NCBI GenBank assembly: GCA_019894715.1
Contig: JAGXOA010000192.1
Coordinates: 1-51,840, forward strand
DNA length: 51,840 nucleotides
Source of the DNA: Promethearchaeota archaeon
GTDB taxonomy: Archaea; Asgardarchaeota; Lokiarchaeia; Sigyniarchaeales; SOKP01
Reading direction: 5' to 3'
In this document: piece by piece, positions 15,430 through 24,441 of the stretch
How positions within the stretch are numbered: position 1 is the first letter of the stretch
Layout: each line of letters starts with the position of its first letter
Translations under genes and position numbers: made by a program
Notes under the pieces: generated by a model
Databases searched by the model: none
The model's input: the letters and a program-made list of their open reading frames with translations, nothing else
Told to the model about the DNA's origin: nothing

Positions 15430-17091
15430 ATGGATAATCAAAGAATTCTAAAAGAAGCGCAAATAATCGCCTCAAAATATTCGTTTTGGATGGTTTCTGG
15501 AGATATAAATCATTTATACGGTTATGTCTATAAGACAGATGAAATTAAATATGAACTTGAAATAAAATTCAGTTCCAATTTTCCTCATTCTCCTCCAGAA
15601 CTTATATTTCATGAAAAAATCAGAAATTTACTTGGTGATATTCAATTAAATACACTATTTAATTGGGATGAGAATCAAAAAGTTGTAAATATTATTGATG
15701 AACTTAAAATGAAAATACAAGAGAGACTGGTTTCTCCTCAAGAAATTCCCGATACTAAAGAACAAAATGATTATATAACCCCCGATATGGATATGTATTC
15801 TTCTGATTTTGAAACAGACCAATATGTTACTCCTACTCTTACAGATAATGATTTTTACTTCGACAATGAAGATAAAATCGAGAAAAATAATCCAAATATT
15901 GAAATGGCAGAAGAAAATAATAATCTTCCTAAAAATATAATAACATCTCCAGAAGAATTATTTGTGGATTCTGATTCAGATTCATTGAAGATTAATACAG
16001 AATTAGGATTAATTCAGCAGGAATATGCTTTTGATCATCAAGGAGATGAAATAGCTGATATTGTTATTTACATGACAATTACATTAACTAAAACATTTTT
16101 AATAAACATTAATTTTTCAAATTATCCAAATAAACCTACTATTATATTACCAAATGAAATAAAATCTATTTTTGGGGATATAAATCAAACATTAACAGCA
16201 TTAAGAAATTGGGAAAAAAAAAATCCTCTTCATATAATTGATATAATTCATGAGCTTGAAAAAAAACTTTCTTCTGTAAAAAAAATAGAGACAGAAGTAA
16301 ATACAATTACCCAAGAATATCAATTTGAAAAGGTATATGGAAGTCTAAGTAAAATTCAAGTAAAGTTGCTAACCTATGGCTTTAAAGAGTATTTTCTAAA
16401 AATGGATTTAGAAACTTTTCCAAAACTGCCAATAATTGAATTAACCCAAGAATTAAGAGACCTTATACGAAAACCTCTAAATGAACTAGAATCAATTAAA
16501 AATTGGGTGGAAAAGGAATCTGAGTCTATTAGTATTTTAAGAGAAGTTTCTTGGTTGATAGATAAACATTCTCGTATCAATTTTGAAATAGATTTGTTAA
16601 GAGAACATTATAAAAATATCAATTATGATATTCTAAGTAATACAATTTATGTAGATATGAAGGGTAAAATGAAATCAGAAGATCTTACCTTCGAATTTAA
16701 AATTGAGTTACCTAAGGATTATCCTATGATGATGCCAAAAATAATTGTAGTAAATGAATTTGACATAGAATCTCATGAAAAGATTAAAAATGACCTAAAT
16801 GCTTCCTTTAAAGACTTTTATAATGATTGGACACCAAATCATTATTTAGTTGATCTTTTTAACATGATTTCCAAGAAAATATTTGAAGTTTCTGTTGTAT
16901 CGTGTGTTATCTGTCATAAAATAGAATGTCCTGAATGTAACGTAAGAATAGCTGGTGCTGAGGGTGATTCATGTCATATTGAATGCCCTTATTGTGAACG
17001 TTCTTATCATAAACATTGTTGGACACAAACAATTAAATCTTTTGGAAAATGTGGATTTTGCTTAAAAACACCTCCACCATCATTCTATTAA
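15430..17091 (+). CDS. protein with four tandem RWD/E2-like domains and a C-terminal RING-type zinc finger
   Basis: A 553-residue soluble protein. Four segments repeat the E2/RWD pattern of an amphipathic helix, a beta meander with a Phe/Tyr-Pro-x-x-Pro turn, and a closing helix: residues 1-100 (NFPHSPPELIF), 186-283 (NYPNKPTIILP), 284-381 (TFPKLPIIELT) and 384-487 (DYPMMMPKIIV). No catalytic Cys of active E2 enzymes follows the turn. The first two domains are separated by an acidic linker (101-185). The C terminus (492-544) has CVIC, CPEC, CPYC, YHKHCW and CGFC zinc ligands resembling a RING or RING-CH finger. RWD-RING proteins in eukaryotes are ubiquitin E3 ligases. A ubiquitin-type E3 or scaffold role in an Asgard archaeon is inferred. 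No ubiquitin, E1 or E2 gene is in this window. Confidence 0.72.
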   Translation: MDNQRILKEAQIIASKYSFWMVSGDINHLYGYVYKTDEIKYELEIKFSSNFPHSPPELIFHEKIRNLLGDIQLNTLFNWDENQKVVNIIDELKMKIQERLVSPQEIPDTKEQNDYITPDMDMYSSDFETDQYVTPTLTDNDFYFDNEDKIEKNNPNIEMAEENNNLPKNIITSPEELFVDSDSDSLKINTELGLIQQEYAFDHQGDEIADIVIYMTITLTKTFLININFSNYPNKPTIILPNEIKSIFGDINQTLTALRNWEKKNPLHIIDIIHELEKKLSSVKKIETEVNTITQEYQFEKVYGSLSKIQVKLLTYGFKEYFLKMDLETFPKLPIIELTQELRDLIRKPLNELESIKNWVEKESESISILREVSWLIDKHSRINFEIDLLREHYKNINYDILSNTIYVDMKGKMKSEDLTFEFKIELPKDYPMMMPKIIVVNEFDIESHEKIKNDLNASFKDFYNDWTPNHYLVDLFNMISKKIFEVSVVSCVICHKIECPECNVRIAGAEGDSCHIECPYCERSYHKHCWTQTIKSFGKCGFCLKTPPPSFY

Positions 17092-21578: not shown

Positions 21579-22592
21579 ATGATTATTCGATCTAAAGCTC
21601 CTTTTCGTGTAAGTTTTGGTGGTGGTGGTACTGATATGCCTCCATATTGTTTGGATCATGGGGGATGTGTAATAAGCACTACAATTGATAGACATGTTTA
21701 TGTATCAATTAAACCAAGAGATGATAATTATGTTCACATAAATGCTATTAATTTTAATGAAAAATATATTTTCCAAATAGGAGATAATGATTATTCTACC
21801 AGATTTGAAGTAATTAAAGGTGTTATTAATTACTTGAAGGTCGATAAAGGATTTGATATTACTATATTTTCGGAATTACCTGTAGGATCCGGTATGGGCG
21901 GATCATCTTCCCTTGCTGTAGCTCTAATTGGTGCCTTTGATAAATATTACAATTTTGGATATAATAAACATGAAATAGCTCAAAAAGCTTATGACATAGA
22001 AAGAATTGAATTAAATCAAAAAGGAGGATATCAAGATCAATTTGCAGCATCATATGGGGGATTTAACTTCATAAAATTCAAAAATGAGGTAGAAGTAATA
22101 CCAATAAAGACATCTATTGATATGATTAATGAACTTCAACATTGTATGATAATGTGTTATGTAGGTGGTTCACATTTCTCTTCAGATATCCAAGATAATG
22201 TATTAGAAGGTTATCAAATAAAAAGAAAATCCTTCATGGAATCAATGGATGATTTAAAGAAAGTTGCATATGGAATGAAAGATATTATTGAATCAAAAGA
22301 CCTAAATAATATTAAACAATTTGGTGATTTATTACATCAAGGTTGGCTGGCAAAAAAAAGTCTTAGCAATAAAATCTCGAATAAAAATATAGAAAACTTT
22401 TATATTAGTTCAAGAAAATTAGGTGTAATTGGAGGAAAGCTTTTAGGGGCAGGTGGTGGAGGACACCTATTATTATTCTCCGAATCCAATCATAAATATG
22501 AAGTAATTGATGAATTGGAAAAAAAAGGTGGAAAAATAATAAATTTTCATTTTAATCCTAATGGATTAGAAGTGTGGAAAATAGATAATTAA
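21579..22592 (+). CDS. hddA: D-glycero-alpha-D-manno-heptose 7-phosphate kinase
   Basis: A 337-residue GHMP kinase. APFRVSFGGGGTDMPPY at the N terminus is the signature of the HddA/fucokinase-like sugar kinases. LPVGSGMGGSSSLAVAL (about 101-117) is the ATP-binding GHMP motif, and LLGAGGGGHLLLF near residue 305 is the C-terminal glycine-rich motif. It phosphorylates heptose 7-phosphate at O1 to the alpha-1,7-bisphosphate of the GDP-heptose route. It is the first gene of a nine-gene plus-strand operon that also has gmhA and gmhB, which makes the assignment firm. The nucleotidyltransferase HddC that would complete GDP-heptose is not in the window. A TATA-like ACATTATATCAAT sits near 21530. Confidence 0.88.
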   Translation: MIIRSKAPFRVSFGGGGTDMPPYCLDHGGCVISTTIDRHVYVSIKPRDDNYVHINAINFNEKYIFQIGDNDYSTRFEVIKGVINYLKVDKGFDITIFSELPVGSGMGGSSSLAVALIGAFDKYYNFGYNKHEIAQKAYDIERIELNQKGGYQDQFAASYGGFNFIKFKNEVEVIPIKTSIDMINELQHCMIMCYVGGSHFSSDIQDNVLEGYQIKRKSFMESMDDLKKVAYGMKDIIESKDLNNIKQFGDLLHQGWLAKKSLSNKISNKNIENFYISSRKLGVIGGKLLGAGGGGHLLLFSESNHKYEVIDELEKKGGKIINFHFNPNGLEVWKIDN

Positions 22593-22683
22593 TCCCAAAC
22601 AAAATAAAAATAGTGGTTATCTTTTTTTTTTACCTTTGTTTATTAAAATAAATTTAAAAAAAAATTTCCAAAATTATAATATT

Positions 22684-23250
22684 ATGAAAAAAGAAATTAT
22701 ATCCATAATAGATGAATCTATTAAAATAAAAGAAAAATTAAAAAATCAAGCAGAATTAATAGCTGATATTTCAAAAAAGATAATAGAAGCATATAAAAAT
22801 CATAAAAAAGTCGTTGTATTTGGAAATGGTGGAAGTGCTGCTGATGCTCAACATATAGTGGCTGAGTTTGTCGGTAAATTCTATATGGATAGAGAATCAT
22901 TACCTGCTTTAGCTTTAAGTACTAATACTTCAAGTCTGACTGCCACAGCAAATGATTTTGGTTATGATAATGTGTTTGAAAGACAAGTATCATCACTCGT
23001 TAATAAAGGAGATATTGTAATTGGTATTAGCACTTCTGGCAATTCTCCGAATGTTATAAAAGGTCTTGAAAAAGCAAAAAATAAAGATGCAATTACTATT
23101 GGATTCACAGGAGAGAAAGAAAACTTTATAGAAAAAATCGTCGATTATTGCTTGAAAGTACCCTCAACAGATACACCTCGTATTCAAGAAGGTCATATAA
23201 CAATAGGACATATTATTTGTTATTTGGTTGAAAAAGAGATCTTTAGTTGA
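22684..23250 (+). CDS. gmhA: sedoheptulose 7-phosphate isomerase
   Basis: A SIS-domain protein of 188 residues from the ATG at 22684. An upstream in-frame TTG at 22636 would add 16 unlikely lysine/asparagine-rich residues. VVFGNGGSAADAQHIVAEFVGKF contains the phosphate-binding Ser and the zinc-ligand His typical of GmhA. STNTSSLTATANDFGY and GISTSGNSPNV complete the active site, and TPRIQEGHITIGHI provides the C-terminal Glu and His residues. The reaction turns sedoheptulose 7-phosphate into D-glycero-D-manno-heptose 7-phosphate. In the operon it follows the kinase and precedes three genes able to make sedoheptulose 7-phosphate. Confidence 0.92.
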   Translation: MKKEIISIIDESIKIKEKLKNQAELIADISKKIIEAYKNHKKVVVFGNGGSAADAQHIVAEFVGKFYMDRESLPALALSTNTSSLTATANDFGYDNVFERQVSSLVNKGDIVIGISTSGNSPNVIKGLEKAKNKDAITIGFTGEKENFIEKIVDYCLKVPSTDTPRIQEGHITIGHIICYLVEKEIFS

Positions 23251-23264
23251 AGGAAGTATTTAAA

Positions 23265-23891
23265 ATGAAGAAAGTAGCTGTAGCATTACATGCCATTGAA
23301 AATGTTAATTTGGATTTGATTAAAAAGTTAATAAACTTAGATTTTATTCATATAGACGTTATGGATGGTATTTTTGTTAATAATACTATGTTGAATTTGG
23401 AGCTCTTTAAAACTATAAAAGAAAATTTTAAAATCCCAATTATTGCACACTTGATGGTTAAAAACCCAATTGATTATATTCAAAAAATAATTCAATATGT
23501 AGATGTGTTTTTTTTTCATATAGAAGCAGAAGATTCCACAAATTTAGTTATCAAAGAATTAAAAAAATATAAGAAAGGAATTGGATTAGTTCTTAATCCT
23601 CCAACACCTATTATAAAAATTGTTCCCTTTTTAGAAGATATAGATTTTATTCTTGTTATGGGTGTAAATCCCGGATGGTCTGGTCAGAAATTTATTCCAG
23701 AAACGATTGAAAAAGTTAATAAAATCTCTAAGTATAAAGATAAATTTAGCTTTGAGATTGATGTTGATGGAGGAGTTAATTTGGAAAATGGTAAGTTGCT
23801 CATAAATGCAGATATTTTAAGTAGTTCAAGTACAATTTTAAATGCTATAGATCCCAATAAAGTGATTAATTCAATAAAAAACCTAACCTAA
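23265..23891 (+). CDS. ribulose-phosphate 3-epimerase family protein
   Basis: A TIM-barrel protein of 208 residues from the ATG at 23265. An upstream TTG at 23247 in the stop region of gmhA is less likely, and GAAGGAAG precedes the ATG as a ribosome binding site. Active-site features of ribulose-phosphate epimerases are present: HIDVMDG, AHLMV, MGVNPGWSGQKF and EIDVDGGVN. It would interconvert ribulose and xylulose 5-phosphates. Placed between gmhA and gmhB with transketolase downstream, its job is probably to feed xylulose 5-phosphate into sedoheptulose 7-phosphate formation. The N-terminal strand (VALHAIENVN) departs from the usual SILSAD, so another heptulose-phosphate substrate is possible. 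Confidence 0.82.
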   Translation: MKKVAVALHAIENVNLDLIKKLINLDFIHIDVMDGIFVNNTMLNLELFKTIKENFKIPIIAHLMVKNPIDYIQKIIQYVDVFFFHIEAEDSTNLVIKELKKYKKGIGLVLNPPTPIIKIVPFLEDIDFILVMGVNPGWSGQKFIPETIEKVNKISKYKDKFSFEIDVDGGVNLENGKLLINADILSSSSTILNAIDPNKVINSIKNLT

Positions 23892-23892
23892 A

Positions 23893-24441
23893 ATGAAAGA
23901 TAAGAATGTCGCAATTTTTTTAGATAGAGATGGAGTAATTAATAAAGAAGTAAATTATCTTGCAGATCCTGATAAGTTTATTTTGTTAGAAGGGACTATA
24001 GAAGCACTTAAAATTCTAGTTAGTAAAGGTTATCTTTTAATTTTAATTACTAATCAAGCAGGTATTGCGAGAGGATATTTTACAGAAACTAAACTTACTG
24101 AAATACATGATAAAATGAATAAGATTTTTAAGGAAAATACAACTTCTCTTGATGATATTTTTTATTGTCCTCATCATCCAATGTTCACTGGTCCATGTGA
24201 ATGCAGAAAACCTAATCCAGGTATGATTATTGAAGCAAAAAAAAAATATAATATAGATCTTGAGAACTCTTACATGGTTGGGGATACTTTGAATGATATT
24301 AAAACGGGTAAAAATGCAGGATGTAAAACAGTTTTGGTTTTAACTGGACATGGAACTGTTGAAAAAGAGAAAATAAATGAAATTAAACCAAATTATATTT
24401 ATAATAATCTATTGCAATTTGCCGAAAATATAAAATTGTAA
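23893..24441 (+). CDS. gmhB: D-glycero-D-manno-heptose 1,7-bisphosphate 7-phosphatase
   Basis: A 182-residue HAD phosphatase with FLDRDGVIN (nucleophile Asp and acid/base Asp) and ITNQAGIARG. A zinc loop CPHHPMFTGPCECRKPNPGM and GDTLNDIKTGKNAG supply the remaining metal and catalytic ligands. The Cys/His zinc loop is specific to the GmhB/histidinol-phosphate phosphatase subgroup. It removes the 7-phosphate from heptose bisphosphate after HddA. It starts one base after the epimerase stop. The pathway step after it, transfer of a nucleotide to heptose 1-phosphate, is not encoded nearby. Confidence 0.92.
   Translation: MKDKNVAIFLDRDGVINKEVNYLADPDKFILLEGTIEALKILVSKGYLLILITNQAGIARGYFTETKLTEIHDKMNKIFKENTTSLDDIFYCPHHPMFTGPCECRKPNPGMIIEAKKKYNIDLENSYMVGDTLNDIKTGKNAGCKTVLVLTGHGTVEKEKINEIKPNYIYNNLLQFAENIKL

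What the first reader, a model, noticed from the sequence alone, without database searches (positions are those of the whole stretch)
15430..17091. Four tandem E2/RWD-like domains capped by a RING-type finger in an archaeon
Sequence shows four repeats of the E2/RWD pattern (Phe/Tyr-Pro-x-x-Pro turns at residues 51-55, 232-236, 330-334, 431-436), none with a catalytic Cys. A C-terminal Cys/His cluster (492-544) resembles RING or RING-CH. RWD-RING proteins are E3 ligases in eukaryotes, usually with one RWD. Four in series suggest a multivalent scaffold or an E3 that recruits several E2s or targets. This may be a previously undescribed ubiquitin-type regulator architecture.
Basis: partly seen in the sequence, partly recalled or inferred. 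Interest (0 to 1): 0.88.

Follow-up and report, generated by a model that had tools for sequence, protein, structure and literature searches.

The report
Archaeal multi-RWD RING ubiquitin ligase
A Lokiarchaeal protein strings four inactive ubiquitin-carrier-like (RWD) domains to a zinc finger of the kind that attaches ubiquitin; it is built like the human DNA-repair ligase FANCL, and its relatives lie next to ubiquitin-activating and ubiquitin-conjugating genes, which suggests that this complex type of ligase already existed in the archaeal kin of eukaryotes.

Summary
Window 15430-17091(+) encodes 553 aa with four RWD/E2-like domains and a C-terminal Cys/His finger. All ten cysteines lie in the finger, so no domain can be an active E2. 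Profile comparison finds D1-D2, D1-D3, D1-D4 and D2-D3 homologous (95-99% probability; column-shuffled controls at most 4.3%). D1 matches Ubc/UBE2K profiles and D4 matches RWD/Ubc13. The finger has an invariant C4HC3 ligand set plus a third CxxC...C...H site like RBX1. The family (23 aligned, dN/dS 0.13) is confined to the window's Asgard class, with a three-RWD core and an extra N-terminal RWD in one order. First, multi-RWD RING ligases are known: the low-confidence AF2 model best matches FANCL, and its RWD-RING end best matches Listerin. Second, genomic context: in three genomes of two other families the gene precedes a ubiquitin E1, in one followed by E2 and a JAMM deubiquitinase; a shorter RWD-RWD-RING cousin sits beside a Ub-E2-E1 operon. 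I conclude it is a FANCL-like E3 of an archaeal ubiquitin cascade (0.72). Caveats: AF2 did not resolve the finger, two of three usual E2-contact residues are replaced, and in the window's genome the gene is not beside the cascade.

The parts
15430..17091 (+). Complete gene, 553 aa: RWD-linker-RWD-RWD-RWD-RING protein
   Evidence: ORF; orthologues; dN/dS 0.13
15430..15732 (+). D1, N-terminal RWD/E2-like domain (residues 1-101); absent in families f5-f7
   Evidence: Pfam UQ_con 39-92; UBE2K 5-99 E 2.5e-4; hhalign to D2/D3/D4 98.9/97.9/95.4%; AF2 order H-EEEE-H-H-H
15733..15984 (+). Acidic, poorly conserved linker (residues 102-185)
   Evidence: Gappy in alignment A1; pLDDT about 21-31
15985..16284 (+). 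D2, second RWD-like domain (residues 186-285); also found fused to a JAMM domain elsewhere in the genome
   Evidence: hhalign to D1 98.9%, to D3 99.3%; weak PDB hit to BRE/BRCC45 E 0.1; RWD-JAMM fusion G000:C194 E 1.8e-11
16285..16575 (+). D3, third RWD-like domain (residues 286-382)
   Evidence: hhalign to D2 99.3%, to D1 97.9%; strands and helices in RWD order; no significant direct Pfam or PDB hit of its own
16576..16875 (+). D4, fourth RWD domain, joined to the finger (residues 383-482)
   Evidence: Pfam RWD 351-479 and Listerin-type UBC_like 414-450; Ubc13 412-476 E 1.4e-4; AF2 pLDDT mostly 62-88
16900..17067 (+). RING-like finger (residues 491-546): C492-x2-C495-x4-C500-x2-C503-x11-C515-x3-C519-x2-C522-x4-H527-x-H529-C530-x10-C541-x2-C544
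   Evidence: Invariant ligands; RBX1 best match E 0.003 single sequence, 0.025 profile; zf-ANAPC11 0.011; H529 to Cys swap in three paralogues

Best explanation
A RING-type E3 ligase (or the E3/substrate-receptor subunit of one) of an Asgard ubiquitin cascade, built like FANCL. SHOWN computationally: four RWD/E2-like domains without any catalytic Cys; a conserved zinc finger with RING ligand order; in relatives, direct linkage to E1, E2 and JAMM genes; genes for ubiquitin-like proteins, E1s, E2s and JAMMs in the window's own genome. INFERRED: the finger docks a charged E2 (probably the type found on contig C216) and speeds transfer to a substrate lysine; the last two RWDs (D3-D4) form a rigid, substrate-binding arm next to the finger as the double RWD does in FANCL; an upstream RWD (D2, and the extra D1) binds ubiquitin non-covalently or docks partners, as the E2-like domain of FANCL does. 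The JAMM enzyme would process or remove the modifier. Substrate unknown.
For: Domain evidence. Whole-model Foldseek top hits FANCL 7kzp_L E 4.6e-6, BRE 6gvw_C 1.2e-5, FANCL again at ranks 4-5; D4+finger model top three hits all Listerin-containing RQC structures (9ofv_e 3.2e-4, 8aaf_e, 9gy4_F). Operon: orthologue followed on the same strand by a ThiF-family E1 in G051, G053 and G054, and in G054 then by E2 (UQ_con) and JAMM. Cousin RWD-RWD-RING beside Ub-E2-E1 in G047, G134, G136; its finger passes the Pfam RING cut-off in G047 (32.0 vs 27.3 bits) and nearly reaches FANCL_C (26.6 vs 27.3); it matches this family's profile as D1 and as D4+finger. Own genome holds a Ub-like/E1/E2/JAMM operon on C7, a second ubiquitin on C98, and counterparts of the G054 E1 (C52) and E2 (C216, 67%). 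FANCL domain roles: PMC4543658. Archaeal E1/E2/RING-E3 activity is proven in Caldiarchaeum: PMC5654768.
Against: The finger was not modelled with confidence (pLDDT 31-51), so cross-brace topology is inferred. Of three canonical RING E2-contact positions only I494 is kept; the position four after the sixth ligand is Thr/Asn and the Pro after the seventh is Gly/Ala. In the window and its near relatives the gene lies by IleRS, not by the cascade. E1/E2 genes are present in nearly all class genomes, the E3 in only 39 of 83, so it is not obligatory. RBX1 matches are weak and composition-biased. The AF2 models come from two-sequence alignments (pLDDT 47 and 64).
Confidence: 0.72

Rival explanations
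1. A non-catalytic scaffold in the ubiquitin system: the RWDs bind ubiquitin, E2 or a JAMM deubiquitinase (as BRE/BRCC45 scaffolds BRCC36), and the finger is a divergent RING that no longer activates an E2.
For: Two of three E2-contact residues replaced; BRE is the second-best fold match and the main ubiquitin-system family among weak D2 hits; a D2-like RWD is fused to JAMM in the same genome and a JAMM gene is in the G054 operon.
Against: All zinc ligands are invariant over a wide range of divergence; the gene directly after it is E1, not JAMM; BRE has no RING (own knowledge); the cousin in the same kind of operon has a canonical RING.
Confidence: 0.18
2. A multi-RWD protein outside protein modification (structural or cytoskeletal, like RWD kinetochore proteins) with an unrelated zinc finger; linkage to E1 in some families is incidental.
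For: RWD domains occur in kinetochore proteins (Knl1 and CCAN hits); no cascade genes near the gene in the window; a weak Rubicon-homology zinc match in 15-16 members.
Against: E3-E1 linkage in two families and RWD-RING beside Ub-E2-E1 in another lineage.
Confidence: 0.06
3. An E3 or E3-like factor for a ubiquitin-like modifier other than the canonical ubiquitin, i.e. a second, parallel conjugation pathway in Lokiarchaeia.
For: The E1 and E2 of the G054 operon are distinct from the C7-operon E1 (37%) and E2 (41%); no modifier gene was found next to them in the regions read.
Against: Whether the two pathways use separate modifiers is not known; the E2 keeps the HPN and catalytic Cys motifs and a canonical 85-aa ubiquitin on C98 is available. 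This differs from the best explanation only in the modifier.
Confidence: 0.04

Closest known systems
FANCL (Fanconi anaemia E3 ligase)
   Same: Three catalytically dead E2-like/RWD folds in series followed by a C-terminal RING; best fold match of the model; the short orthologues (f5-f7) have the same count and order.
   Different: A fourth RWD (D1) plus acidic linker here; finger has a third CxxC...C...H site and no significant FANCL_C Pfam match; no FANCD2/FANCI sought; E2-contact residues differ.
Listerin/Ltn1 C-terminal RWD-RING
   Same: RWD immediately followed by a C-terminal C4HC3 RING; Pfam UBC_like 26.8 vs cut-off 27 bits (its Listerin origin is from memory); top three fold matches of D4+finger.
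   Different: No HEAT-repeat body (553 aa against about 1,500-1,700); no link to ribosome quality control shown.
RBX1 / APC11 RING-H2
   Same: Third zinc site: from C500 on, ligand spacing equals that of RBX1; best PDB sequence match of the finger.
   Different: RBX1 His77 position is not a ligand, C519 replaces it; fused to RWDs, not a small cullin partner; match weak.
Caldiarchaeum-type archaeal ubiquitin operon (Ub, E2, E1, srfp RING, Rpn11)
   Same: Same set of functions clustered: E1, E2, RING E3, JAMM (PMC5654768).
   Different: The E3 is a large multi-RWD protein instead of a small RING protein; in the window's own genome it is unlinked.
BRE/BRCC45
   Same: Several UEV/RWD folds in series in a JAMM-associated ubiquitin complex; second-best fold match.
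   Different: No RING finger.

Membership tests
RWD / E2-like (UBC) superfamily | RWD/UBC sequence profile | tested here: met
   UQ_con and RWD over Pfam cut-offs in P0001 (33.9 vs 27; 31.1 vs 22.8) and matched by 23/23 members
RWD / E2-like (UBC) superfamily | Helix, four strands, Pro-rich turn, C-terminal helices | tested here: met
   AF2 secondary structure order in D1-D4, at low confidence; D4 better. D2 and D3 rest on homology to D1
Active E2 enzymes | Catalytic cysteine | tested here: not met
   No Cys outside the finger in P0001; no conserved Cys column in the RWDs of the family
RING-type E3 ligases | Eight zinc ligands in cross-brace order C1C2..C3C4..H5C6..C7C8 | tested here: met
   Invariant in 23/23; order only, topology not solved
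RING-type E3 ligases | Cross-brace fold | tested here: inconclusive
   Finger pLDDT 31-51
RING-type E3 ligases | E2-contact residues: hydrophobic between C1 and C2, Trp or hydrophobic at C6+4, Pro at C7+1 | tested here: not met
   Only the first is kept; the cousin in L109/L110 keeps Ile and Trp
RING-type E3 ligases | Genomic link with E1/E2 (supporting, not strictly defining) | tested here: met
   Orthologues in G051, G053, G054; not in the window's own genome
RING-type E3 ligases | Ligase activity | not testable with these tools
   Needs biochemistry
FANCL | E2-like fold + double RWD + RING in this order | tested here: met
   Three-RWD orthologues L024-L027; P0001 has one more RWD; Foldseek rank 1
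FANCL | FANCL_C RING profile (PF11793) | tested here: not met
   No hit at E up to 10 in P0001; not listed for the finger alignment at E up to 1; near cut-off only in cousin L109
FANCL | FANCD2/FANCI substrates, Ube2T partner | not tested
   No search made
Listerin/Ltn1 | UBC-like domain followed by C-terminal RING | tested here: inconclusive
   UBC_like 26.8 vs cut-off 27 bits; Foldseek ranks 1-3 for D4+finger
Listerin/Ltn1 | Long HEAT-repeat body | tested here: not met
   Protein is 553 aa of RWDs; no HEAT hit in Pfam
RBX1/APC11 | Third zinc site (CxxC...C...H) | tested here: met
   C500, C503, C515 invariant, H529 22/23, H529 to C in L071, L075, L076
RBX1/APC11 | Small protein bound to a cullin; zf-rbx1 or zf-ANAPC11 over cut-off | tested here: not met
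   zf-ANAPC11 16.2 vs 25 and zf-rbx1 12.1 vs 31 bits for the finger; cullins not searched

The most novel reading that the evidence does not exclude
Asgard RWD-RING proteins are the archaeal stock from which the eukaryotic multi-RWD (FANCL) and RWD-RING (Listerin) ligases descend: a two-RWD RING ligase tied to a Ub-E2-E1 operon grew by RWD addition to three and four RWDs, acquired a third zinc site, and serves a second E1/E2 pathway.
Probability: 0.3. Interest if true: 0.87.

Novelty: new variant of a known kind. Interest (0 to 1): 0.72.

Why it matters
Substrate-choosing E3 ligases are the part of the ubiquitin system thought to have expanded within eukaryotes, and the experimentally characterised archaeal E3 known to me is a small RING protein (PMC5654768). 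A conserved family of large multi-RWD RING proteins, linked to E1/E2/JAMM genes in Asgard archaea and folding like FANCL and Listerin, makes the origin of these ligases testable with recombinant proteins. No paper in the searched library joins RWD domains to Asgard ligases; that library lacks most subscription journals and preprints, so prior description cannot be excluded.

Tried and rejected
Direct PDB/Pfam searches with D2 and D3 alone gave nothing convincing (top hits HflX, sliding clamp); their identity rests on homology to D1. D3-D4 hhalign was not significant (1.4%). Rubicon-homology domain (best 4.6e-5, 16 members) was considered and not adopted: the match covers mainly the Cys-rich stretch and the RWD-RING context explains it better. 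Plain RBX1 membership rejected: missing ligand, sub-threshold Pfam. Rubredoxin-like knuckle: disfavoured by the four-part ligand order, not excluded by structure. Conserved neighbourhood in the window's own family is only IleRS synteny. PADLOC gave only a weak E2 match and NCBIfam none for P0001. Calls that only returned errors: 5, 9, 14, 66, 71, 74, 90, 107.

Full report
OBSERVATION. The reading frame 15430-17091 on the + strand is complete and 553 aa long. It is a real, selected gene: the closest orthologue (G001) is 75% identical with dN/dS about 0.13, and 23 sequences from the same archaeal class align over D2 to the finger (one public record, L031, is a Candidatus Lokiarchaeota MAG).

FOUR RWDs. 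A single-sequence Pfam scan gives UQ_con (2.9e-8) and RWD (2.8e-7), both over their cut-offs; every one of 23 members matches both families. A profile of the family reaches UBE2K over residues 5-99 (2.5e-4) and Ubc13 over 412-476 (1.4e-4) in the PDB. D2 and D3 have no convincing direct match, but profile-profile comparison ties D2 to D1 (98.9%), D3 to D1 (97.9%) and to D2 (99.3%), and D4 to D1 (95.4%), against at most 4.3% for column-shuffled controls. An AF2 model from only two sequences has low confidence (pLDDT 47), yet each repeat shows the RWD order of strands and helices, with no N-terminal helix assigned in D2 and D3. All ten cysteines sit in the finger, so none of the four can be an active E2.

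FINGER. C492, C495, C500, C503, C515, C519, C522, H527, C530, C541 and C544 are invariant in 23 sequences, H529 in 22. The order fits a C4HC3 cross-brace (C492/C495/H527/C530 and C519/C522/C541/C544) with an extra site C500/C503/C515/H529. From C500 onward the spacing equals that of RBX1, the best PDB match (E 0.003 single, 0.025 profile; biased composition), except that RBX1 His77 is not kept and C519 stands in (RBX1 ligand assignments from own knowledge). In three paralogues (L071, L075, L076) H529 is Cys, the swap expected of a zinc ligand. Neither AF2 run resolved the finger (pLDDT 31-51), so topology is inferred. H496 is also invariant and could be an alternative ligand. Of the three canonical E2-contact positions only I494 is kept, a real caution against assuming standard ligase activity.

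FOLD NEIGHBOURS. The whole model best matches FANCL (7kzp_L, 4.6e-6; also 9a0j_L and 3zqs), then BRE (6gvw_C) (chain assignments to FANCL and BRE from the entry titles and own knowledge). The D4+finger model best matches chains of three ribosome-quality-control structures, taken as Listerin by chain length and title. TM-scores are modest because the models are poor. FANCL is an E2-like fold, a double RWD and a RING; its RING recruits E2, the double RWD holds substrate and the E2-like fold binds ubiquitin (PMC4543658).

GENOMIC CONTEXT. In the window's family the gene often sits beside IleRS. In families f5 and f7 the shorter orthologue (three RWDs + finger) follows a nucleotidyltransferase and is followed on the same strand by a ThiF-family E1 (G051: L082; G053: L056; G054: L057), and in G054 then by an E2 and a JAMM protein (Pfam; E2). 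E1 and E2 of this type are widespread in the class; the window's genome has the E2 at C216 (67% identical to that of G054) and the E1 at C52 (57-60% over its N-terminal part), besides a separate Ub-like/E1/E2/JAMM operon on C7 and a canonical 85-aa ubiquitin on C98. In G047, G134 and G136 a cousin (two RWDs + canonical RING; 286-288 aa where complete) lies beside Ub-E2-E1, with a JAMM gene nearby in G134 and G136. It matches this family's profile as D1 and as D4+finger and nearly passes the FANCL_C model (26.6 vs 27.3 bits in G047). G047 has 9% estimated contamination, so its contig may be misbinned.

DISTRIBUTION. With a D4+finger profile over 228 phylum genomes, strong matches (E<1e-40) occur in 39 genomes, all of the window's class (83 genomes sampled), and E2 genes in 79 of 83. 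Paralogues with a coiled coil instead of D1 exist in family f4 and, more divergent, in f5-f7. D2-like RWDs also occur fused to a JAMM domain, including in the window's genome.

MECHANISM. Best supported: an E3 or E3 receptor in which the finger engages E2~Ub, the RWD arm holds substrate, and an upstream RWD contacts ubiquitin. Shown: domains, missing active site, ligand conservation, operon linkage in relatives, presence of cascade genes. Inferred: E2 pairing, ligase activity, domain roles. Main rival: a BRE-like scaffold with a RING that no longer activates an E2.

COMPARISON AND NOVELTY. Works like FANCL; not a member by the FANCL_C test, and its substrates were not sought. It has a Listerin-like RWD-RING end without the HEAT body, and an RBX1-like third zinc site without being RBX1. 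Best class: new variant of a known kind. No paper in the searched library describes it, within the limits of that library.

Noticed in passing
G000:C52 (L099 6423-6926), G001, G140, G145 (E1); G139, G140, G151, G162 (E2): L099-L108: The second-type E1 and E2 genes of several Lokiarchaeia carry 30- or 39-nt insertions with in-frame stops, at one site in E1 and three sites in E2; relatives without the insertion read straight through and removal keeps the frame. They look like tiny, possibly bulge-helix-bulge introns in protein-coding genes; the G000 insertion can form a hairpin, but shuffles do about as well in some genomes. Splicing is unproven.
   Followed up: partly
G000:C194 (L046 3682-4341), L028: A D2-like RWD domain fused to a JAMM protease domain in a 219-220 aa protein: a possible deubiquitinase sharing its RWD with the ligase.
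   Followed up: partly
G000:C7 (L043 1758-6075 and 7612-9657): Ubiquitin-like/E1/E2/JAMM operon with a predicted membrane protein ending in a RING-like finger, and nearby a 681-aa protein with a C-terminal RING that keeps the canonical Trp and Pro. The 127-aa ubiquitin-like protein ends in TAGICQ, not a plain di-glycine.
   Followed up: partly
L057 12184-13368: Next to the G054 cascade: a von Willebrand A protein with two C-terminal zinc fingers, Ssl1-like by Pfam.
   Followed up: partly
L110 6332-7051, L111 1481-2209: M48 peptidase with a C-terminal RING-like finger beside the Ub-E2-E1 operon.
   Followed up: partly
window 21579-24441: Genes resembling D-glycero-D-manno-heptose synthesis (HddA-like kinase, GmhA-like isomerase, GmhB phosphatase over its cut-off) in an archaeon.
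   Followed up: partly
L029, L030: D2-like RWD in a 309-aa protein with charged, probably coiled-coil flanks in other Lokiarchaeia.
   Followed up: no
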